Shown here: in pieces, positions 6,324-57,348 of the stretch | Layout of the letters: each line of letters begins with the position of its first letter | How positions within the stretch are numbered: the first letter of the stretch is position 1 | From: an uncultured Prevotellaceae bacterium | GTDB lineage: Bacteria > Bacteroidota > Bacteroidia > Bacteroidales > Bacteroidaceae | Assembly: GCA_900313235.1 (NCBI GenBank) | Contig: OMQN01000008.1 | Coordinates: 1 to 59,432, forward strand | Length of the DNA: 59,432 nucleotides | Direction: 5' to 3' | The notes under the pieces: model-generated | Database searches by the model: none | What the model was told of the DNA's origin: nothing | What the model saw: the letters and a program-made list of their open reading frames with translations, nothing else | Made by a program: the position numbers and the translations under genes

Positions 6324-6617
6324 TGAATTGAAGAAAAAAATAGGAATGGTAATCGCCTGCCATAGTGGTAGCAAGACTAATTTTGATTCCTCCCTATCGC
6401 TCACCCATAAAAACAGGGTTCACACTTATTGCACGATATATCAACGGTTTGCGCGTGAATGTGAAGGCAAATTTTAAGTAAAAACTTCTGTAAGGTATAC
6501 TTGGTGTGCCCAGATTATTGGGGGAAGAATGTGTCAATGCAGCCAATACTCGATTCATTATCTTCCTGTTTATTAGCAACTTAACCGTTTCAATCTGTGT
6601 CAATCGCTTGTAACCTC

Positions 6618-6750
6618 TTGACAAGGGCTTTTTTATTTCGTAACTTTGCATTGACATACTTATCAATCAAGAGTGTTAATCCAACGGAATGGAGTCGCCA
6701 GTTGATGTCAAGGGGCGCAAATGGCAGGCAGCTGACGACTCCGTTATTTT
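6618..6750 (+). ncRNA. Promoter-hairpin element, copy 1 (candidate small RNA or structured leader)
   Basis: TTG (6618) and TAACTTTG (6641-6648) form a consensus promoter (P1). The transcript would run through a conserved stretch of about 95 bases ending in a hairpin. GGAGTCG (6691-6697) pairs with CGACTCC (6736-6742), then CAGTTG pairs with CAGCTG inside, leaving a 24-base loop with the word AAGGGGCGCAAATGGCAGG. GTTATTTT follows, like a terminator. The same element occurs at 11684 and 14929. With copy 3 the similarity reaches further upstream (from 6531). A second promoter and a TPR gene follow. Whether P1 makes a terminated small RNA or an attenuating leader cannot be told from sequence. It resembles no RNA family I can name. 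Confidence 0.55.
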
Positions 6751-6827
6751 AAAAAGTATGAAAGATGAAAAAGAGTATGATTATATCGAAAGAAATGGTT
6801 ACCTTTGCAGAATTAATTAAACAATCA

Positions 6828-7979
6828 ATGATGAAAAGAACAATATTGACGTTGGTCGCTTTACTGGGCATGGTTTCTGCCTGGTCGCAAACAGACGAAA
6901 TAAGTAAGGAACAGGCAGATAAGCTGAACGCTATCACCCTCAAGTTGATGGAGCAGAAACGATATGACGATGCCATCAAAGCCAAGGAGCGTGAACTTGT
7001 CATACTGAAATCGCTGTATGGTGAAACGGATAGCACTTACATCAAACAGTTTGCTTTCAGCGCAAAGTTGTATTACAGGAACAAGCAGTCAGCAGAAGCA
7101 ATCAATGTGATAGAAAAGGCTGCAAACCTTTATGCTGCAAATGTCAGCAATAACGATGCTTTGTATGCGTATTATCTGGACAATCTGTCATTGTATCAGC
7201 TCTCAGTCAATGATTATGTCAAAGCTGCGGAAAACTGTAGGAAAGCATTAACTATCTATGAGAAGTTGGGTCGTAACGATTATGACTTGGCTGTTATTCT
7301 AATGCATATGGCAGAGGCTAGCCATTATATTGACCAGACATCAGAGGCTATCAAATATGAGATACGAGCTCTGAATATTATCAAGAAAATATGTGGCGAG
7401 CATTCTGATGAGTATCTTGAAGAACTGCCCTATCTGCACAAATACTATACTGCTGTAAACGACGAGAAAAACGCCAAGCAGGTGGAAGATAAGATAGCCA
7501 GACTAAACAAAGAAAAGGAAGAAGGCATTGTCGACCTTCCCGAGCCTATCATCTTCAAAAGTGCGGAAGAATGTCGTGAGCATAATAGCGATGCATTCGA
7601 ATGCATTAAATACTACCTGACTCATAAGGTTAGTGCCCCACAGATTGATCAGGCTGCAAGGTATATTCTTAATTGGAGCGAAGCAAGTGCTGATGTGACT
7701 ATCAATATTGGCAAAGAGATGGCCCCTCTGGCTTCCGAAAAGAACCCTGCTTATTTGGTTGCCTATATCGCCTCTTGCAGCTATGTCTGTCTGACGGAAA
7801 ACATGAAAGAGCTTGACGAGCAACATTTTATTCAGGCCATTGACATCCTCCTCCAGTTCTACAAACCCAACAGCCAGCTGACAGGCAAGGTTGACTTATT
7901 GGAAAACTACTTGAAGTTGCAAGAAAAGGGGAAATTGGAAAAGACCCTTCGCAAAGTTTTTGCGGAAGAGAAGAAATAA
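6828..7979 (+). CDS. Secreted TPR-repeat protein (about 383 aa)
   Basis: I set the start at 6828 (MMKRTILTLVALLGMVSAWS), which gives a clean signal peptide. The frame is open to 6765, but that extension crosses a TAnnTTTG box at 6800-6807 that should be the gene's own promoter, with a leader of only about 15 bases. After the signal peptide come helical repeats of TPR type (e.g. YAYYLDNLSLYQLSVNDYVK, AAENCRKALTIYEKLG, AIKYEIRALNIIKKICG) to about residue 230, then a helical C-terminal half with no repeat I recognise. Family knowledge: TPRs bind proteins. Inference: a periplasmic or surface-associated scaffold. The next gene starts 13 bases downstream, so the two are probably cotranscribed. Confidence 0.75.
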   Translation: MMKRTILTLVALLGMVSAWSQTDEISKEQADKLNAITLKLMEQKRYDDAIKAKERELVILKSLYGETDSTYIKQFAFSAKLYYRNKQSAEAINVIEKAANLYAANVSNNDALYAYYLDNLSLYQLSVNDYVKAAENCRKALTIYEKLGRNDYDLAVILMHMAEASHYIDQTSEAIKYEIRALNIIKKICGEHSDEYLEELPYLHKYYTAVNDEKNAKQVEDKIARLNKEKEEGIVDLPEPIIFKSAEECREHNSDAFECIKYYLTHKVSAPQIDQAARYILNWSEASADVTINIGKEMAPLASEKNPAYLVAYIASCSYVCLTENMKELDEQHFIQAIDILLQFYKPNSQLTGKVDLLENYLKLQEKGKLEKTLRKVFAEEKK

Positions 7980-7992
7980 TAGGCTCATTTTT

Positions 7993-9669
7993 ATGCATCA
8001 GAAGGATAAGAAATATGAACGAATAGCAATGCTTAAAAGTCGAAAAGCAGAATTAGACAGCGAAACATTAAAGTTGTTTAATGCTTTTTGTGATACAAAT
8101 TGTGGAGAAGATGATGGTTTTATAGACGTTTTATTTCCTATTCTTGCCCCAACGAAAATCGGCTTTGAAGATCTTTATGAGGGAGTGTTTAGTTCTTTTA
8201 TTCATTTCATATTGGATGACGAATATGCTTCCATTTTTTATAGCTATCTTCACTTAGAAGAAAATAGTTCATGTGTACGTTACCCCCTTATTAAGCCAAT
8301 GAGGAACAAACGTCCTGTCGCTCATGCCATTTATATTAATATTGCTATAACCAATTTCTTCTACCTCAATGCTTATGGATGGAGTGAGCGTCAGCTCTTT
8401 ATTGATGAATCATCTAAAGAGACATCCGCTTTGCCAGAACTAAGTGCTACAGAATGGCTCGCAGGACGAATATACCAAAATGATCAGCAAATAATTGACA
8501 GTCTTTTTCAATCCTTAATAGACGGTAGCTGGACAGAACGATGGCGCACTTATTTTTTATGGGCGATTTCACTCAGTGGAAATCAGAAGTTAATAGATCA
8601 GCTGTGCAATATACTGGGAAATGAAGCCTATCGAGGAATGAGTGATGATGTTGTCAGAGCTCTTTGTGATGGGCACGCCAACTGTATGCTAACTCTTTTA
8701 CATTTTACACTTGATTCCTATTTAAAAAATGGCGATTGGATGCTAAATGGAGTTTATGATGACTATGTCATAAATGAAATATTCCATAAGTTTGGTCTTG
8801 ACTATTTACCAATAGAGGAGGAGTATAATGCATTAACCCTACTCATTGGTTGTTTGGAAAGTGAGATACAAAGAAATGAAGCACTCTCGTCAGACGTCTT
8901 TCTCAATACGTACATAGGCTTGGCGACCACGGCCTTTTACAATGGTGAATTAGTATGGGATAAGGCTAATCAATTCAACAACGAAGGGTCGGAAATGCAT
9001 ATCAAAGCAGCCCTATTGTACTATAGTCATACGTGGACGATGCAAGCATACCACGTACTATCCACAAGGGTTATGGAAAAATGGAGTCATAATCTGTCTG
9101 TGATGGCTTATGCCGTTCCAGGATTTATGAACCGTATTGATATGACAGGGCGCTGGAAAGAAATCCATATGTGCGACATTTCTGAATTCTTGTGTACTGA
9201 AGATGACCTTAGAAAAATGTATTATTTCTTTAAAGACCTTCTTTCCAATCTTCCTCCAAAACTAACTTATCAGGAAATGACAGCATATTGGGAGTATAAA
9301 AAGCTGACACGTTCAGAGGTTATAGCAAAGATGGCAGCAATTGTATGGTTCCTTGATGACAAGAAGCTCAAGGACGACGTGATTGACTTTATAGACCAAA
9401 GTGAATGTATTGGAGTTTTCATAAAGCTATGCCTCGGAAAACCTCGTGGAAAAAAACAACTCAGATTTCTTATTCAGTCGCTTGGTTGCAGAAGAGAAGA
9501 TGCTAGATGCTGGGCATACTCCATAGTCAAAAATCTAAAGTTGTCTTCCAAAGAAATGGATCAAATAAAGAAGTTACAAAAATCAAAATACATAAAGACT
9601 CGCCAAATGGTAAAAGAAATAGAGGATTCACAGAGCCAGATTTTTGATTTCAGCCATTCAACTAAATGA
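7993..9669 (+). CDS. Hypothetical protein of about 558 aa, probably helical-repeat
   Basis: I do not recognise this protein. It has no signal peptide or membrane segment and is rich in aromatic residues and Trp, with helix pairs throughout. The C-terminal third (SLGCRREDARCWAYSIVKNL and onward) is basic. ATG at 7993 is preferred because it lies 13 bases after the TPR gene's stop. The longer frame from 7960 would overlap that gene, and a further ATG lies at 8029. Base composition is clearly lower in GC than the dcw region, which points to accessory or transferred DNA. It may be the working partner of the TPR protein. A terminator-like repeat follows at 9691. Confidence 0.6.
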   Translation: MHQKDKKYERIAMLKSRKAELDSETLKLFNAFCDTNCGEDDGFIDVLFPILAPTKIGFEDLYEGVFSSFIHFILDDEYASIFYSYLHLEENSSCVRYPLIKPMRNKRPVAHAIYINIAITNFFYLNAYGWSERQLFIDESSKETSALPELSATEWLAGRIYQNDQQIIDSLFQSLIDGSWTERWRTYFLWAISLSGNQKLIDQLCNILGNEAYRGMSDDVVRALCDGHANCMLTLLHFTLDSYLKNGDWMLNGVYDDYVINEIFHKFGLDYLPIEEEYNALTLLIGCLESEIQRNEALSSDVFLNTYIGLATTAFYNGELVWDKANQFNNEGSEMHIKAALLYYSHTWTMQAYHVLSTRVMEKWSHNLSVMAYAVPGFMNRIDMTGRWKEIHMCDISEFLCTEDDLRKMYYFFKDLLSNLPPKLTYQEMTAYWEYKKLTRSEVIAKMAAIVWFLDDKKLKDDVIDFIDQSECIGVFIKLCLGKPRGKKQLRFLIQSLGCRREDARCWAYSIVKNLKLSSKEMDQIKKLQKSKYIKTRQMVKEIEDSQSQIFDFSHSTK

Positions 9670-9690
9670 ACGATAATAGTTGAGCATCTA

Positions 9691-9765
9691 TTAACATGCC
9701 TCAACCCCAGTGCACATCGGTGTTTGAGGCATGTCATGTTAATAGGTTAATAGTTTTCTTGCAAC
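9691..9765 (+). repeat. Hairpin repeat, copy 1 (terminator-like)
   Basis: ACATGCCTCAA pairs with TTGAGGCATGT around a loop, followed by ATGTTAATAGGTTAATAG and TTTTCTTGC. The same unit occurs at 14088-14165 and, inverted, at 57270-57348. It lies between convergent genes (the 558-aa gene and fic), where a terminator is expected. This copy has a mismatch (C for T) just outside the stem. Confidence 0.75.
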
Positions 9766-9825
9766 CCCCTTTTTCTATCCCTTGGCAGTTTGTTAGAAAT
9801 AGTAAAAAGCTGCCTGTGCCCTCCA

Positions 9826-10716
9826 TTATTTATACGCAATCTTGAAATAGTTGAGCAATAACTTGTACTGGTCTTGAGCCGTCAGACAGGTATCCATAAG
9901 GAAACCGTTGACGTGGCCCCACTCTTTCAAACCACGATAATAGAACATTTTAAGCTCGTCGGTGATAATGAAAGGGACAATACCATTAGCCAGACACTCC
10001 TTGAATAGGAGCAAACGGCCAACACGACCATTGCCGTCCTGGAAAGGATGAATCTGTTCAAAACGTACATGGAAATCGATGATGTCTTCCAGCGTCTTTC
10101 GCTTGTTGTGATTATAGGTGGAGAGCAAAGCCTTCATCTGCTGATGCACCTCCTTAGGAGAACAAGTCTCCTGTCCGCCGACTTCGTTTGGCAGTCGTTT
10201 ATAATCGCCAACAGCAAACCAGTCCTTTCGGCTATCTGATGTGCCACTCTTCAATAGCAGATGGAGTTGTTTGATGAAACCCTCTGTCAACGAGTCCCCT
10301 GTATGGTCAATGATATAGTCGATACATCGGAAGTGGTTAACTGTTTCAACAATGTCGTCAACATTGACGGATTCATCGGTAATGCCAATGGTGTTCGTCT
10401 CAAAGATATAGCGTGTCTGATCGTGCGTCAGGCGACTACCTTCTATATGATTGGAGTTATAAGTCAGGTCAATCTGTGTACGATGATAGATACCACCCTT
10501 CAGCCTTGCCTCTTTCTGTTCTCGCAGTACTGCCAATAGAGGTGACACCTTCTTCTTGACTGCACCTCGCTGTGGCATAGCAGCATCGGCTGGGATGTTC
10601 CACGTCTTGCCAACGAGAAATGCACCATCAATCTTTCCGTTCGCACAATAGTTGCGAGCCGTTCGCTCCGAAATGCCATATTTCTCGGCAAATTGCATTA
10701 CTGATATATACTCCAT
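9826..10716 (-). CDS. Fic-domain protein with N-terminal helix-turn-helix (296 aa)
   Basis: Residues 1-50 look like an excisionase/MerR-type winged helix (MQFAEKYGISERTARNYCAN then GKTWNIP). The Fic core follows, with the full active-site motif HPFQDGNGRVGR near residue 225. The motif SNHIEG near residue 90 fits the (S/T)xxxE(G/N) inhibitory helix, which would make this an N-terminally self-inhibited (class II) Fic protein. Family knowledge: Fic enzymes transfer AMP or other nucleotide parts to a target Ser/Thr/Tyr in the cytoplasm. Inference: the HTH domain regulates its own promoter, which is flanked by two palindromes (10737-10806). The target is unknown, and no separate antitoxin is seen, as expected for class II. 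Confidence 0.9.
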   Translation of the reverse strand: MEYISVMQFAEKYGISERTARNYCANGKIDGAFLVGKTWNIPADAAMPQRGAVKKKVSPLLAVLREQKEARLKGGIYHRTQIDLTYNSNHIEGSRLTHDQTRYIFETNTIGITDESVNVDDIVETVNHFRCIDYIIDHTGDSLTEGFIKQLHLLLKSGTSDSRKDWFAVGDYKRLPNEVGGQETCSPKEVHQQMKALLSTYNHNKRKTLEDIIDFHVRFEQIHPFQDGNGRVGRLLLFKECLANGIVPFIITDELKMFYYRGLKEWGHVNGFLMDTCLTAQDQYKLLLNYFKIAYK

Positions 10717-10736
10717 CGGTCAAATAGTACTCACTA

Positions 10737-10806
10737 TTGCCTTCTATCGGCAAGTTATTAGTTCGTTTTCAACTGCAAATATACTACTTTTTGCCGATAG
10801 CGGCAA
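10737..10806 (-). promoter_or_regulatory. fic promoter flanked by two TTGCCG palindromes
   Basis: On the minus strand TATATTTG (10776-10783) is the -7 box and TTG (10804-10806) the -33 element. TTGCCGATAGCGGCAA (10791-10806) is a perfect palindrome with half-site TTGCCG that covers the -33 element. A second, slightly imperfect copy (TTGCC...CGGCAA, 10737-10753) lies just after the transcription start. This looks like a dual operator for a dimeric repressor, most simply the HTH domain of the Fic protein. Confidence 0.65.
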
Positions 10807-10834
10807 GTTTTTACCTATTTTTCTTGCAAAAACC

Positions 10835-11458
10835 TTATTTCTTTTCTTCATATTCTGCTTCCATTTCTTTAAGCTTATTTGTCATCTTCTCAATCAGTGG
10901 TACATAGTACTTGTGTACTTCCTCGGCTGTAGGCGTGTGGCCACCAGGGAAATGAAACGAGTGAGAGTAGTACTGTAGAAATAGTGGCTCAAAATGTGCC
11001 AGCGTGTCTTGTTCACCGAAGATGCCCCAAATACGATCCTTATAGGCTGGAATGTAGGTGTCAAACTGGTGTGCCTCCATCTCTGTAAACTCGGCAATTA
11101 GCTTTTCATCGATTATGAAGTCCTGCTGGCCATCTTTGCGAGGCGATTTATATTGATGTGCGCCAATTCGTGGCTTCAGGAATTCAGTCATCTTAAAATG
11201 TGGATTGCCCAGCAATGCCGGCAGGCCGAGTGTTGAGGCTATCATCTGCGCATAGAACGAACCACAACTATTGCCCACCAATACATCAGGCTTCTCACGG
11301 TCTATCAAGTCACGGATATAGTTGACAGCTTCCTTCGGATGCATTGGCAAGTCTGGCGTCAGTACCTCTACCTTGTCTTTTAGGGCCTCCTTCAATGCTA
11401 TAGCAGGCACACACTGGCCACTGGCATAGAATCCATGTAAGAATAGTATTTTCTTCAT
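10835..11458 (-). CDS. YqiA/YcfP-like alpha/beta-hydrolase (207 aa)
   Basis: The start is ATG at 11458 (MKKILFLHGFYASGQ). A longer frame from 11515 would run across the likely -7 box TATCTTCG at 11493-11500. The oxyanion motif LHGF is at residues 6-9. The nucleophile elbow is GNSCG (Ser near 73). The acid is probably in GEQDTLAHF and the catalytic His in GGHTP. Family knowledge: YqiA-type proteins are small cytoplasmic esterases acting on acyl-CoA or thioesters; the real substrate here is unknown. It stands alone, upstream of fic on the same strand but with fic's promoter between them. The C-terminus is highly charged (EMEAEYEEKK). Confidence 0.82.
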   Translation of the reverse strand: MKKILFLHGFYASGQCVPAIALKEALKDKVEVLTPDLPMHPKEAVNYIRDLIDREKPDVLVGNSCGSFYAQMIASTLGLPALLGNPHFKMTEFLKPRIGAHQYKSPRKDGQQDFIIDEKLIAEFTEMEAHQFDTYIPAYKDRIWGIFGEQDTLAHFEPLFLQYYSHSFHFPGGHTPTAEEVHKYYVPLIEKMTNKLKEMEAEYEEKK

Positions 11459-11683
11459 AATAATCAGGAGTTTCCTATTATTAAATCTGCTGCGAAGATA
11501 CGAAAAAACTTCCATACCACCAGCGATACGGAGGATTCTTTTGTGTTTAATTAGGAGTTTATTGATTTCAATGGGCTCTTTGAGCGCATTGCAGATGTGT
11601 CAATAAGGCTATCGACGGATCCGTTATTTGTCTGATTTATAGTATTTTGACTCTCCTATCCTGTGTCAATAGCGTATTGCCTC

Positions 11684-11820
11684 TTGACAAAGCTGTTTTT
11701 CTTTTGTACCTTTGCATCGACATACTTATCAATCAAGAGTGTTAATCCAAAGGAATGGAGTCGCCAGTTGGTGTCAAGGGGCGCAAATGGCAGGCAGCTG
11801 ACGACTCCGTTAATTTTAAA
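11684..11820 (+). ncRNA. Promoter-hairpin element, copy 2 (candidate small RNA or structured leader)
   Basis: TTG (11684) and TACCTTTG (11707-11714) have the same 23-base offset as in the other two copies. GGAGTCG (11757-11763) pairs with CGACTCC (11802-11808), with the inner CAGTTG/CAGCTG stem and the same loop, followed by GTTAATTTT. Similarity to copies 1 and 3 starts only at about 11670, so this copy lacks their longer upstream part. It is followed by a second consensus promoter and the DUF4153-like gene. Confidence 0.55.
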
Positions 11821-11859
11821 AAGAATGAAACTATGAAAACAAGAATGACTAAACTTTCC

Positions 11860-11890
11860 TTGCCTGTTTGTTGGAAATGTTGTATCTTTG
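11860..11890 (+). promoter_or_regulatory. Second promoter (P2) before the DUF4153-like gene
   Basis: TTG (11860-11862) and TATCTTTG (11883-11890) are spaced as in the consensus. The segment from TTTCCTTG through the -7 box resembles the P2 promoter at 15127-15157, so both promoters are conserved between copies 2 and 3. Confidence 0.7.
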
Positions 11891-11960
11891 CAGAATACAA
11901 GCATTAACCAAGCAATCAGGGACGAGTTACTCGAGAATATTAAAAATATGCTCCATAAAA

Positions 11961-13610
11961 ATGAATAGAAAACTGAAATCATTGATGCAGCAGTTGCTGC
12001 AAAGCCCACGGCGCTTTCCTGTTGAGTTTGCCCTGGGAATGGTGTTCTTTATCATAGCAGTGTGGGACAGTGAGTCATCCACATGGAATGAGACATCGGC
12101 ACGGATGGAGAGCGTAGTAAACAGTGACATCTTGTGGTTCTTCGTTCCGTTGATGGTGTTGACTTTCTGGCTCCATCGTGTTAACCGTTGGGCCTACATT
12201 GCATCGTCCTTCCTCTTCCTGCCCCTGATGGTCCTCGACCTGAAGCCGTTCCTGTGGACTTACGGTTTTGGATTCACCTACGTCTTAGCAGGTATTCTGT
12301 TGATAGTAGGCAACAAACGGATGAACAATCGCCCGTTTGCGGCTCATGCTCTGCATGTGGTCACTCAGATATTCTTCGGCTTACTCATTACCCTCATTCT
12401 CAATTTAGCGGTGATAGCTATTGTGGCCTCGTTCTTCTATATCTTCGGCATCGAAGAACCTAAGCATCTCTATGAACATATCATCCAGTTTATCTGGTTT
12501 GTGCTGGCTCCGCAGGTATGTTGCACGCTGATTCGTCAGAACGAGGACGAGGTTACAGAACCCTTCAAGATTCTCAGGCTCATTCTAAACTTCATCCTCT
12601 CGCCAGCCGTTATCATCTATACCGTCATCCTCTATACCTATTTTATAAAGATAGTCTTCGAGTGGGACTTGCCCAAAGGCGGAGTAGCTTGGATGGTAAT
12701 GGCCTTCATCACGGCTACATTGGTAGGTCGCGTGGCACAGTCGATACTCAGTCAGCGTTATTACGACTGGTTCTACAACCGTTTCACGCTGATAGCCATT
12801 CCACCACTCATCATGTATTGGATAGGTTCCATCTATCGCATCCGTCTCTATAGCTTTACAGAGAGCCGTTTCTACCTGATGGTGGCAGGTTTGCTGATGA
12901 CCATCTTCGTTGTAATGCTATGGAAGGAGCGGACCCGTAAGTACCAGCTTATGGCACTTATCTTTGGTGCAGCTATCATCCTCTTCACCTATATCCCTGG
13001 CATTTCTGCCAAGAGCATCGGACTGAGTTGTCAGAAGCAGCGACTCACCCAGCTTATTAGCGAAATGAAACTGACAGATGCCAAAACGGGCAAGTTGAAT
13101 GATGAGCTCGACATGAGACGCATCAAACAGGACAGTCTGTTGTGCGAGAAATACAAGGATGTCAGCAGCGTCATACACTATGTCCGCAATGAAATTGGAA
13201 CCGATGAGTTTGAAAAACAATATGGCGAATGGTCGCACTCGGAATATAGTTTCGACTATGATAAGAAAAAGACAAAATACTCTATATGTATTGACGACAA
13301 CCCTTATACTTATACAAGGAGAAAGCCTGTAGAGTTAGGTGACTACACCATTATGCTTCCTGAGAAGGATTATGATTGTGATTTCGAAAATGGAATTTTC
13401 ACCGTTAGCCGAGATAAGGGCGCTGTCGTCCTTGAATACCCCATCAATGCGATGATTAAGAAGGACACGATGCTGCTGCATCATCCTGAGCAACTGCTCA
13501 CCTATCGTAATGACTCGCTTATGATGGTACTCCATAGTATCAGCATTGATGATACCATTGTGACAGATGCCATCAGGTTCTCAGATTTCCAGCTGTTTAA
13601 GAAAAAGTAG
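11961..13610 (+). CDS. DUF4153-like integral membrane protein (549 aa)
   Basis: The start at 11961 (MNRKLKSLMQQLLQSPRRFP) is preferred. The frame reaches back to 11868 but would include the P2 promoter. About ten hydrophobic segments fill residues 20-370 (for example FALGMVFFIIAVW, VTQIFFGLLITLILNLAVI, GLLMTIFVVML). Then comes a soluble charged domain of about 180 residues, likely periplasmic or extracellular. The middle part (AVIIYTVILYTYFIK, then GGVAWMVM) is typical of DUF4153 proteins in Bacteroidales. Function unknown; the family is a membrane protein of unassigned role. It is followed 43 bases later by a small basic-protein gene. Confidence 0.7.
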   Translation: MNRKLKSLMQQLLQSPRRFPVEFALGMVFFIIAVWDSESSTWNETSARMESVVNSDILWFFVPLMVLTFWLHRVNRWAYIASSFLFLPLMVLDLKPFLWTYGFGFTYVLAGILLIVGNKRMNNRPFAAHALHVVTQIFFGLLITLILNLAVIAIVASFFYIFGIEEPKHLYEHIIQFIWFVLAPQVCCTLIRQNEDEVTEPFKILRLILNFILSPAVIIYTVILYTYFIKIVFEWDLPKGGVAWMVMAFITATLVGRVAQSILSQRYYDWFYNRFTLIAIPPLIMYWIGSIYRIRLYSFTESRFYLMVAGLLMTIFVVMLWKERTRKYQLMALIFGAAIILFTYIPGISAKSIGLSCQKQRLTQLISEMKLTDAKTGKLNDELDMRRIKQDSLLCEKYKDVSSVIHYVRNEIGTDEFEKQYGEWSHSEYSFDYDKKKTKYSICIDDNPYTYTRRKPVELGDYTIMLPEKDYDCDFENGIFTVSRDKGAVVLEYPINAMIKKDTMLLHHPEQLLTYRNDSLMMVLHSISIDDTIVTDAIRFSDFQLFKKK

Positions 13611-13653
13611 TAGATTACATAAACCCCAATTATTACAATACTGAAATAAAACA

Positions 13654-14040
13654 ATGAGTAAAACATATCATACAAAAAAGGCATTTAAGCAAAAGATTTA
13701 CAATATTATTCAATCACAAGAAAAGCTATCTGCTGAGAGTGGCGTAACGACTTTAGCCACTGAAGCTCAATTTCTCAATGCTTACTCAAAGGCAAAAGCC
13801 CAACATACCAGACACCCATCAGGAACGAAAGCAACTGGTCTAAAACAATGGTTTAAAGGCAAACCGAGAGTAGCGGATCAGAGAGACCACTTGGGCGAAA
13901 CAGAAGTACAAAGTTCACGATTAAGAATTGATCGTAGGGCAGGTAATCATTTTGCTCGCCTAAAGATTAAAAAGGATCTCCGCACACTAATGAATGGCTT
14001 GAATACTAAAGAAGAGTGCTCAGAGAGTCCGTCACTCTGA
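13654..14040 (+). CDS. Small basic hypothetical protein (128 aa)
   Basis: I do not recognise this protein. It is rich in Lys, Arg, Gln and Thr, has no signal peptide or membrane segment, and looks flexible and nucleic-acid-binding in composition (e.g. TGLKQWFKGKPRVADQ, RLRIDRRAGNHFARLKIKKD). It lies 43 bases downstream of the DUF4153-like gene on the same strand and is followed by the hairpin repeat. The N-terminus (KTYHTKKAFKQKIYNII) is a basic helix. It could be a truncated phage or mobile-element protein. Confidence 0.5.
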   Translation: MSKTYHTKKAFKQKIYNIIQSQEKLSAESGVTTLATEAQFLNAYSKAKAQHTRHPSGTKATGLKQWFKGKPRVADQRDHLGETEVQSSRLRIDRRAGNHFARLKIKKDLRTLMNGLNTKEECSESPSL

Positions 14041-14087
14041 CGCATTGATTCCAATGCATATTCCATGTTTATTAATAGTTTGGCGAA

Positions 14088-14165
14088 CATTTAACATGCC
14101 TCAAGCCCCGATGTAGAAAGGGCTTGAGGCATGTTATGTTAATAGGTTAATAGTTTTCTTGCAAT
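14088..14165 (+). repeat. Hairpin repeat, copy 2 (terminator-like)
   Basis: AACATGCCTCAAGCCC (14093-14108) pairs perfectly with GGGCTTGAGGCATGTT (14120-14135), followed by ATGTTAATAGGTTAATAG and TTTTCTTGC. This is the best-preserved copy of the three. It lies between the convergent small basic-protein gene and the TonB-C lipoprotein gene. Confidence 0.85.
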
Positions 14166-14206
14166 GAACTGTCATAGCGATCCCTGTGCTTCCGAATCCC
14201 ATGGCT

Positions 14207-14650
14207 TCATTCTACTCTGAAAGTGATAGGAATCATGTATTTGGTTCTGACAGCTTCTCCATTCAGTTTGCCAGGAGCCCATTTCGGCATACTGCTTACT
14301 ACCCGTAGCGCTTCCTCGTCGAGAGACTGATAGACACTCTTCACGACTTTGGGTTCCGTGATGCGTCCATCTCTTTCCACCACAAAGGAAACGATGACAC
14401 GCCCTTGCACACAGGTATCCTCACAATCGTCTGGATAGCGAATGTTCTCTGTCAGATAGTCGAACAGTGCTTTCTGGCCACCAGGGAATGAAGGCATTTG
14501 CCCCCATCCACAGCAAAAGAGCTTCGTGGATGCTTTCTTCACAGCGGGAGGCGCAGGCATGGTTTCCATCGCACACTCTGTCATTTCACTACAAGACGAC
14601 AAGACAGTCAGAACTGCCATAATACCAATAATAGATTTAGTACTTGTCAT
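14207..14650 (-). CDS. TonB C-terminal-domain lipoprotein (147 aa)
   Basis: The N-terminus MTSTKSIIGIMAVLTVLSSC has a lipobox (LSSC), so Cys20 is probably lipidated. The TonB_C domain (residues 60-147) has MPSFPGGQKALFDYL, RYPDDC, QGRVIVSFVVERDGRI and the end YMIPITFRVE, all standard for the family. Family knowledge: TonB-C proteins of this short lipoprotein type in Bacteroidales are predicted to touch TonB-dependent receptors, but lacking the transmembrane anchor and proline spacer they are unlikely to carry energy from the inner membrane. It is a lone gene with its own promoter (14682-14712). Confidence 0.85.
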   Translation of the reverse strand: MTSTKSIIGIMAVLTVLSSCSEMTECAMETMPAPPAVKKASTKLFCCGWGQMPSFPGGQKALFDYLTENIRYPDDCEDTCVQGRVIVSFVVERDGRITEPKVVKSVYQSLDEEALRVVSSMPKWAPGKLNGEAVRTKYMIPITFRVE

Positions 14651-14681
14651 AATTCATATATTTTTTATGGGTTTGATGTTG

Positions 14682-14712
14682 CAAAGATACAACAAGAAAA
14701 CAGCGATGTCAA
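14682..14712 (-). promoter_or_regulatory. Promoter of the TonB-C lipoprotein gene
   Basis: On the minus strand TATCTTTG (14682-14689) lies 20 bases after TTG (14710-14712). The start codon is about 30 bases downstream. Confidence 0.7.
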
Positions 14713-14928
14713 GAGGCATCGAGCGATAGACACAAATGGAAAACTTATTCTGTTGAATATCAGGAACTTGAATTCTTCTAAAACCCAGTATTGACACAAC
14801 AAGGTTGCACTGAGCAATCAGATCATTGGGGATTGCAGAGTGTGTCAATGTAGCCAATACGGGGATTGTTATCTTCCTGTTTATTAGCAACTTAATTGTT
14901 TCAATACGTGTCAATCACTTGTGGCCTC

Positions 14929-15062
14929 TTGACAAGGCCTTTTTTATTTAGTACCTTTGCATCGACATACTTATCAATCAAGAGTGTTAATCCAAGAGAA
15001 TGGAGTCGCCAGTTGGTGTCAAGGGGCGCAAATGACAGGCAGCTGACGACTCCGTTATTTAA
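14929..15062 (+). ncRNA. Promoter-hairpin element, copy 3 (candidate small RNA or structured leader)
   Basis: TTG (14929) and TACCTTTG (14952-14959) are followed by the conserved segment. The hairpin is GGAGTCG (15002-15008) with CGACTCC (15047-15053), inner CAGTTG/CAGCTG, then GTTATTT. Upstream similarity to copy 1 extends back to about 14843. Just after the hairpin an ATG opens a nine-codon frame, MNDEKEREK. Copy 1 has the related start MKDEKEY in the same place. Confidence 0.55.
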
Positions 15063-15126
15063 AAAAGAATGAACGATGAAAAAGAGAGAGAAAAGTAATA
15101 TGTTTGTAAAAAATATTCATTTTTCC

Positions 15127-15157
15127 TTGTATGTTTGTAAAAATAAATGTAACTTTG
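15127..15157 (+). promoter_or_regulatory. Second promoter (P2) before the small BspA-like gene
   Basis: TTG (15127-15129) and TAACTTTG (15150-15157) have consensus spacing. The start codon at 15185 follows about 20 bases after the expected transcript start. Confidence 0.75.
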
Positions 15158-15184
15158 CACACTGAATTAATCACACTCATAACA

Positions 15185-15952
15185 ATGAAAAAACTATTAT
15201 TATTTATCGTATTGATGATGTTGCCTTTTGCGGCGAATGCTAAGGTAAAGATTAATGGCATTTATTATGCCTTGGATGACGAGAACGAAACAGCTGAAGT
15301 GGTGTTCGGAGGGTATTCGGGAGATGTCGTGATACCATCGACGGTGACCCAGAATGATGTGGTGTATACCGTGACAAGTTTTGCGAAGAACGCTTTCTAC
15401 AACAGTCCCCAGATGACTTCTTTAACGATTCCGAAGAGTGTTACTTCGATTAAATATCATAGAGGATTTTTCTATAACTGTAATAAGCTGGCTTCCATCG
15501 TTGTGGAGGAAGGGAATCCCAACTATGACTCTCGCGAAGGGTGTAATGCGCTTATTGAGACGGCCAGCAACAAACTGTTGTACGGAACCCCAAGCTCGTT
15601 TATCCCCAATAGTATTGCGACCATCGGAGTAGCAGCAATGACGCATCTAAATGTTACTACGCTTACTATTCCCAACAGTGTGACAACCATCGAAGACGGT
15701 GCGTTTTCTGGCTGTACTGAACTGACCTCTGTCTATATTGGTACAGGTCTGGAGCACATCGGTGAAAATATATTTAATGAGTGCAATCAACTGAAAACGG
15801 TTGAGATAAACAGCAATGCGCTGGTCTCTAAGAATTACACCAGTGAAGAGATAAATGTATCAGGTGACGGCAAGCTGCTGGCAGCGCCCCAGCGTGGCCT
15901 GAACATCGTCAAGATGAGCGATGGCACGACGAAAAAGGTGGTAGTGAGATAA
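15185..15952 (+). CDS. Short BspA-like LRR surface protein (255 aa)
   Basis: The start at 15185 (MKKLLLFIVLMMLPFAANAK) gives a clean signal peptide. The open frame from 15131 would run across the promoter. The start domain (KINGIYYALDDENETAEVVF) matches that of the 656-aa LRR protein. Only about five LRR_5 units follow (SLTIPKSVTSI, TLTIPNSVTTIEDGAF, SVYIGTGLEHIGENIF), then the tail GLNIVKMSDGTTKKVVVR. Family knowledge: secreted adhesin or ligand-binding protein. It is driven by the two-promoter element upstream. A shorter cousin of the genes at 1103-4669. Confidence 0.85.
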   Translation: MKKLLLFIVLMMLPFAANAKVKINGIYYALDDENETAEVVFGGYSGDVVIPSTVTQNDVVYTVTSFAKNAFYNSPQMTSLTIPKSVTSIKYHRGFFYNCNKLASIVVEEGNPNYDSREGCNALIETASNKLLYGTPSSFIPNSIATIGVAAMTHLNVTTLTIPNSVTTIEDGAFSGCTELTSVYIGTGLEHIGENIFNECNQLKTVEINSNALVSKNYTSEEINVSGDGKLLAAPQRGLNIVKMSDGTTKKVVVR

Positions 15953-57269: not shown

Positions 57270-57348
57270 TTGAGAAGCAAAAAACATTTAACCTATTACC
57301 ATAACATGCCTCAAACCCCGATGCTCAAAGGGTTTGAGGCATGTTAAA
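57270..57348 (-). repeat. Hairpin repeat, copy 3 (inverted)
   Basis: AACATGCCTCAAACCC (57303-57318) pairs with GGGTTTGAGGCATGTT (57330-57345). Read on the minus strand, the order hairpin, TAATAGGTT, TTTTTTGC matches copies 1 and 2. In that orientation it would end the GH31 gene at 57564; on the plus strand it follows the ABC relic. Confidence 0.8.

What the first reader, a model, noticed from the sequence alone, without database searches (positions are those of the whole stretch)
6531..15157. Three-copy promoter-hairpin-promoter element before three unrelated genes
At 6618-6750, 11684-11820 and 14929-15062 the same unit recurs: TTG and TAnnTTTG at exactly the same 23-base offset, then about 95 conserved bases with a 7+6 bp stem (GGAGTCG/CGACTCC and CAGTTG/CAGCTG) and the loop word AAGGGGCGCAAATGGCAGG, then T-rich sequence. 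Each copy is followed by another promoter and a gene: a TPR protein, a DUF4153-like protein, a BspA-like protein. P1 plus the hairpin looks like a self-contained unit making a terminated RNA of about 100 bases, or an attenuating leader. Copies 1 and 3 share a longer upstream part (from 6531 and 14843) that copy 2 lacks. I do not know an RNA family that fits.
Basis: partly seen in the sequence, partly recalled or inferred. Interest (0 to 1): 0.82.

Follow-up and report, generated by a model that had tools for sequence, protein, structure and literature searches.

The report
Regulator-linked small RNA genes in Prevotella
The three repeated units look like copies of an uncatalogued small RNA gene of Prevotella, each with a two-box promoter that is found almost only in genomes carrying one particular membrane protein, which points to a signalling circuit that the databases searched do not list.

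Summary
Three copies of one unit lie at 6531-6756, 11597-11822 and 14842-15067: two GTGTCA boxes 60 bp apart, a TTG-N20-TAnnTTTG promoter and a two-hairpin RNA of about 105 nt. Copy 2 does not lack the upstream part. A covariance model found the RNA in 19 of 398 genomes of the genus. In 28 distinct copies, 12 of 20 pairs of the long hairpin show two-sided changes and 97% of cells pair. Rfam 15 has no match.

The unit belongs to a larger system. The promoter pattern is in 60 of 398 genomes (reversed control 0); a membrane protein, "REG", is in 60 of 398; 55 have both. REG is often divergent from the RNA. Two further RNA types hold the same place beside more distant REGs. A fourth box promoter (14682-14797, minus) precedes a TonB_C gene.

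Best reading: free-standing small RNA genes switched by REG, copied to new sites. 12 of 45 RNA loci end against a convergent gene, so an obligatory attenuating leader is unlikely; five loci still look leader-like. Transcription, REG's DNA binding and RNA targets are untested. New variant of a known kind.

The parts
6531..6648 (+). two-box promoter of copy 1: GTGTCA 6531-6536 and 6597-6602, TTG 6618-6620, TAACTTTG 6641-6648
   Evidence: pattern matches
6649..6752 (+). RNA copy 1 (ends estimated): 5' hairpin, then long hairpin 6688-6745 and T-rich tail
   Evidence: folding; covariation
11597..11714 (+). two-box promoter of copy 2: GTGTCA 11597-11602 and 11663-11668, TTG 11684-11686, TACCTTTG 11707-11714
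11715..11819 (+). RNA copy 2 (ends estimated), long hairpin 11754-11811
14842..14959 (+). two-box promoter of copy 3: GTGTCA 14842-14847 and 14908-14913, TTG 14929-14931, TACCTTTG 14952-14959
14960..15064 (+). RNA copy 3 (ends estimated), long hairpin 14999-15056
14682..14797 (-). fourth two-box promoter (gap 58, second box GTGTCT, one mismatch), divergent from copy 3
14207..14650 (-). TonB_C protein gene behind the fourth promoter, 147 aa
   Evidence: PF03544 E=1.4e-19; TIGR01352
6765..7979 (+). TPR protein after copy 1 (start codon uncertain; a later ATG is at 6828)
11868..13610 (+). DUF4153 protein after copy 2 (start codon uncertain), behind its own promoter 11860-11890
15131..15952 (+). 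BspA-type LRR protein after copy 3 (start codon uncertain), behind its own promoter 15127-15157

Best explanation
Each copy is a free-standing small RNA gene of a regulon run by a membrane protein, REG. Shown by computation: this strand has a conserved, covarying hairpin behind a 5' hairpin; it is not coding; its promoter has two GTGTCA boxes at fixed spacing; that promoter type and REG occur in nearly the same genomes, and REG is often the divergent neighbour of the RNA. Inferred: REG senses something at the envelope, binds the boxes through its conserved C-terminal domain and switches on the RNA and a few TonB_C and lipoprotein-like genes; transcription starts a few bases after TAnnTTTG and mostly ends at the long hairpin, giving an RNA of about 100 nt. 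Least sure: the conserved 5' loop (UACUUAUCAAU) pairs with target mRNAs in trans. In the window's lineage the promoter-RNA unit has been copied next to TPR, DUF4153 and BspA-type genes, of which the last two keep a complete promoter of their own.
For: Covariation: 12 of 20 hairpin pairs with two-sided changes; 97.0% of 700 cells paired against 89.7% shuffled and 33-48% when slid, covariation score reached by 0 of 500 shuffles. RNA in 19 of 398 genomes. Two-box promoter in 60 of 398, reversed control 0; REG in 60 of 398; 55 shared. REG divergent from the RNA in 17 of 31 named loci and in 8 of 8 type C loci L103-L110. Convergent gene after the RNA in 12 of 45 loci. At least 5 T in 9 bases behind the stem's G-C part in 23 of 28.
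Against: No transcript data. The hairpin was not listed by the terminator scan, and 5 of 28 copies have fewer than 5 T in 9. In the shuffle control one measure, further pair types, is not exceptional (27 against 25.6; 131 of 500 reach it), and the 5' helix has no two-sided change. 33 of 45 loci have a same-strand gene next. REG's DNA-binding domain is only weakly supported (GerE in 2 of 20 members, best E 0.074; no PDB match). 5 genomes have the promoter without REG and 5 REG without it. In the window's own genome the RNA copies are on another contig than REG. A search for start-codon targets of the 5' loop found one plausible case in 18.
Confidence: 0.7

Rival explanations
1. Cis-acting leader: the RNA is the 5' part of the mRNA of the following gene, and the hairpin attenuates it or is read through under some condition.
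For: 33 of 45 loci have a same-strand gene next. In L018, L019, L020, L021 and L089 a TonB_C gene follows 114-133 or so bases after the RNA start with no second promoter between, and elsewhere TonB_C genes are driven directly by the box promoter.
Against: 12 of 45 loci are followed by a convergent gene. The following genes are unrelated. Copies 2 and 3 of the window and several relatives have a complete second promoter before the gene.
Confidence: 0.2
2. Both: the RNA is made as a terminated small RNA that acts in trans, and regulated read-through also feeds downstream genes where they lie close.
For: Mixture of convergent and directly adjacent same-strand contexts.
Against: No direct evidence for read-through; overlaps with the best explanation, which already allows it at some loci.
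Confidence: 0.3
3. Mobile or selfish repeat that spreads promoters, with no role for the RNA.
For: Three copies in 8.5 kb, varied neighbours, patchy occurrence.
Against: Repeated position beside REG in diverged lineages, fixed box spacing, covariation with many G-U pairs, and no match in viral contigs for the 5' pattern.
Confidence: 0.04

Closest known systems
GibS / FopS small RNAs of Bacteroides thetaiotaomicron (PMC11697453; passages seen by term search)
   Same: Multi-copy (FopS: 14 paralogues) small RNAs of a related genus, with a Rho-independent terminator hairpin and Bacteroides-type promoters.
   Different: [quoted passage not shown] here a conserved 5' hairpin comes first and the long hairpin has a different build. 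No two-box promoter or neighbouring REG is described in the passages seen.
Small RNA genes beside their own regulator (OxyS/OxyR, GcvB/GcvA, SgrS/SgrR; recalled, the passages seen do not describe the gene order)
   Same: Small RNA gene divergent from a transcription regulator that is thought to control it.
   Different: REG is a membrane protein without a clear relative in Pfam; the promoter has two boxes about 58-60 bp apart; the RNA has no Rfam family; copies lie away from the regulator.
HMP2_1032 and HMP2_4205, candidate structured RNAs in Bacteroidetes (PMC8040213; passages seen)
   Same: Hairpin candidates of 106 and 132 bp near TonB and TPR genes respectively.
   Different: Described as palindromic terminators, without regulator or promoter element. 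Their sequences are in supplements that could not be opened, so identity is neither shown nor excluded.

Membership tests
Free-standing bacterial small RNA | own promoter | tested here: met
   Bacteroidetes-type TTG-N20-TAnnTTTG with two upstream boxes; by sequence only
Free-standing bacterial small RNA | conserved RNA structure | tested here: met
   type A; type C
Free-standing bacterial small RNA | intrinsic terminator at the 3' end | tested here: inconclusive
   hairpin with T-rich tail in 23 of 28, but not listed by the scan
Free-standing bacterial small RNA | not tied to a downstream gene | tested here: met
   convergent gene in 12 of 45 loci
Free-standing bacterial small RNA | transcript of discrete size | not testable with these tools
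   no RNA-seq at hand
Free-standing bacterial small RNA | base-pairing target | tested here: inconclusive
   one crude search only; 1 of 18 non-self hits at a plausible start codon
Attenuator or riboswitch leader | always 5' of a same-strand gene | tested here: not met
   12 of 45 convergent
[quoted passage not shown]
   5' helix paired in 97.9% of cells in 28 copies, though without two-sided changes
GibS/FopS | R1 seed sequence | not tested
   seed letters were not obtained
Any Rfam 15 family | score at or above gathering threshold | tested here: not met
   window and 20 related loci; only tRNA matches
Regulator-small RNA divergent pair | small RNA gene divergent from the regulator gene | tested here: met
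   17 of 31 named loci, 8 of 8 type C loci; not so for the window copies
Regulator-small RNA divergent pair | regulator binds and controls the RNA promoter | not testable with these tools
   only co-occurrence, 55 of 60, and adjacency
LuxR/GerE regulator (for REG) | GerE domain above Pfam's cut-off | tested here: not met
   2 of 20 members match, best E 0.074, 13.1 bits seen for P0002 against cut-off 23.5; a distant HTH is not excluded

The most novel reading that the evidence does not exclude
A Prevotella-specific envelope signalling system not yet described: a one-piece membrane-spanning regulator (REG) reads a two-box promoter with about 58-60 bp between the boxes, and its oldest target is a divergently transcribed small RNA whose 5' loop is kept across RNA types that otherwise differ. 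The promoter-RNA unit also works as a portable module that is copied in front of new genes, as seen three times in 8.5 kb here.
Probability: 0.45. Interest if true: 0.75.

Novelty: new variant of a known kind. Interest (0 to 1): 0.62.

Why it matters
Seven literature searches listed no paper that describes a Prevotella small RNA family; subscription papers and preprints are largely not held. If right, this finding gives a covarying RNA family, its likely regulator, a precise DNA motif and a small regulon at once, in a genus with many rumen species. Type C versions lie in nearly complete genomes, so cultured species may allow direct tests of how a membrane protein controls an RNA in Bacteroidota.

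Tried and rejected
Coding reading of the hairpin (ATG GAG TCG CCA ...): of 11 copies with the exact string, 5 have a stop at codon 12 and one (L018) is frameshifted. The script's 'no ATG' label for the other 17 only means that the exact string is absent.

Start-codon pairing by the 5' loop: TTGATAAGTATG in 16 RNA-bearing genomes gave 26 hits, against 4 for the reversed control. Eight are the RNA genes themselves; of the other 18, one (L140) begins an ORF of over 100 codons and five lie in one recurring coding sequence (where these five were wrongly labelled RNA-antisense). Not supported, though a crude test.

Phage origin: the 5' pattern has no match in viral contigs. Rfam below cut-off: four chance-level hits.

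Matches set aside before counts: L032 (5' hairpin only), L034 and L035 (promoter without RNA) counted as CM matches but not in the 28-row alignment; L004 and L008-L011 are promoter-like or partial matches. Identical or truncated copies were dropped by script.

The LuxR row is now 'not met'. Searches were added. Odds were lowered slightly for the best explanation only because the rivals are now listed in full.
Full report
What is in the window. Three copies of one unit lie at 6531-6756, 11597-11822 and 14842-15067 on the plus strand. Read 5' to 3', a unit has GTGTCA, 60 bases, GTGTCA, 15 bases, TTG, 20 bases, TAnnTTTG, then about 105 bases that fold into a short 5' hairpin and a long hairpin, then a T-rich stretch. 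A scan of the whole window that allowed three mismatches found these three promoters and one more, at 14682-14797 on the minus strand with one mismatch; the reversed and the complemented window gave none. The fourth stands in front of a TonB_C gene (14207-14650, minus). The statement that copy 2 lacks the upstream part is not right: its boxes are at the same spacing and only the bases between them differ.

It is a structured RNA. A covariance model from five copies of three genomes found 19 of 398 genomes of the genus, 16 of them not in the model; the weakest, G243, has only the 5' part. Twenty-eight distinct type A copies were aligned by sequence alone with MAFFT. RNAalifold gave 20 pairs in the long hairpin, 12 of them with changes on both sides. 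For a fixed structure of 25 pairs, 97.0% of 700 cells are paired, against 89.7% after shuffling and 33-48% when the 3' side is slid; no shuffle of 500 reached the covariation score or the number of pairs changed on both sides, but 131 of 500 reached the number of further pair types. The second stem occurs as CAGUUG/CAGCUG, CAAGUG/CACUUG and CGGGUG/CACCCG. A C-A opposition between the first two stems is kept in 27 of 28, with U-A in the other. The 5' helix is kept in 97.9% of cells but has no two-sided change, so it rests on folding and conservation only. Many G-U pairs point to pairing in RNA of this strand rather than in DNA (inference). The hairpin is not coding.

Two related types. Beside more distant REG proteins the same promoter leads into type B, CAYCGACAUACUUACCAAUGUCAACUGCAAACCAAC in most copies, plus a different GC-rich hairpin, and into type C, near GACAAUAAGUUCCAAUAUAUGUCAUCUGCA, plus another hairpin with a T tail. 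For type C RNAalifold gave 22 pairs, 6 with changes on both sides, from 8 sequences. That the three types share one ancestor is inferred from place, promoter and shared start, not proven by alignment.

The promoter and its likely regulator. The two-box pattern is in 60 of 398 genomes of the genus and the reversed pattern in none. A protein that I call REG is in 60 of 398 by profile (E<=1e-15). Fifty-five have both. Box only: G051, G123, G288, G364, G404. REG only: G022, G056, G183, G232, G371. Fisher's p is 1.8e-55; for the RNA against REG, 16 of 19, p is 7e-12. The genomes are related to each other, so these p-values are only a guide, and each search scored a limited number of candidates per genome. 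In a family-wide sample REG was in 5 of 251 genomes and 1 of 30 genera. REG is about 275-330 aa beside types A and B and longer (about 390-440 aa) beside type C. It has an invariant cysteine near the N-terminus, a hydrophobic stretch in the middle and a very conserved C-terminal 100 residues with LTPKET and QAxRSTKSRL motifs; lipoprotein-like start, membrane anchor and helix-turn-helix are my reading of the alignment.

Gene neighbourhood. The pattern TTTGCANYGACRTACTTAYCAA found 31 loci in the GTDB collection: titles name Prevotella or Prevotellaceae in 27, Bacteroidales in 3 and no taxon in 1; the 7 titles that name an animal all name a ruminant. Of the 31, 23 are type A and 8 type B. REG lies in 22 of 31 and is divergent from the RNA in 17 of 31; 26 of 31 have both exact boxes. 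Some of the nine without REG are cut short. In type C loci L103-L110 REG is divergent in 8 of 8. Other two-box promoters lead into TonB_C genes, several followed by a radical SAM activase, or into lipoprotein-like genes. Of 79 distinct exact two-box promoters in the loci fetched by then, 25 lead into type A, 8 into B, 9 into C and 37 into something else. In the window's own genome REG, a TonB_C gene and the activase are on another contig (REG at C146:8480-9322) with a two-box promoter but no RNA seen there, while all three RNA copies found are in the window.

Free-standing gene or leader. One search examined 46 distinct RNA loci, window copies included, with open reading frames of 100 codons or more as genes; one lacked flank. 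Of the other 45, 12 are followed by a convergent gene (7 of 29 type A, 5 of 7 type B, 0 of 9 type C) and 33 by a same-strand gene. So a same-strand gene is not required. In L018 (read as L043), L019 (L047), L020, L021 and L089, however, a TonB_C gene follows directly with no second promoter between, which fits read-through. I take a small RNA gene as the basic state, with possible read-through at some loci.

How it probably works. REG at the membrane receives a signal and acts at the boxes; the RNA and a few envelope genes respond. Promoter pattern, adjacency and co-occurrence are shown; binding, activation and signal are inferred. The RNA most likely acts in trans through the conserved loop of the 5' hairpin. 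This is the weakest step: a simple search for perfect complements at start codons found one plausible case among 18 non-self hits.

Known or new. Rfam 15 has no match at its cut-offs in the window or in 20 related loci other than tRNA. GibS and FopS of Bacteroides are the closest small RNAs in kind but differ in 5' structure (PMC11697453, passages seen). A survey of human microbiomes lists Bacteroidetes hairpins near TonB and TPR genes (PMC8040213, passages seen); their sequences could not be checked, so an earlier listing of one type cannot be excluded. Of a review on small RNAs (PMC8383071) I saw passages only, and they do not describe regulator-adjacent gene order. The other papers were seen as search listings. 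A small RNA beside its regulator is a known principle (OxyS/OxyR, GcvB/GcvA, SgrS/SgrR, recalled), so I file this as a new variant of a known kind.

Noticed in passing
window 9692-9764, 14092-14164, 57302-57346: A dispersed inverted repeat, TAACATGCCTCAA...TTGAGGCATGTTA, in the first two places followed by the same ATGTTAATAGGTTAATAGTTTTCTTGCAA; these two lie behind the gene groups of copies 1 and 2. A similar sequence is in L006 near 2816-2870.
   Followed up: partly
L032 (G243), about 1501-1580: An exact copy of the 5' hairpin of the RNA without the two-box promoter or the long hairpin, preceded by other strong inverted repeats.
   Followed up: partly
G019 and G404 (for example L126, L127): Larger two-box regulons: five and six promoters; two near-identical ones 0.93 kb apart in G019. 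G404 has six promoters but no REG match.
   Followed up: no
two-box promoters in fetched loci: A further word TGATnnTCA recurs 29-30 bases before the second box, in up to 35 of 79 distinct promoters by a loose pattern.
   Followed up: no
L024 and L025, L026, L029, L101: In this clade the linker holds GATAAGT, complementary to ACTTATC of the 5' loop (9 bases, ATACTTATC/GATAAGTAT, in L024), so an alternative fold is possible (read).
   Followed up: no
window 9826-10716 (-): A Fic/DOC family protein gene with an N-terminal HTH-like match between copies 1 and 2.
   Followed up: no
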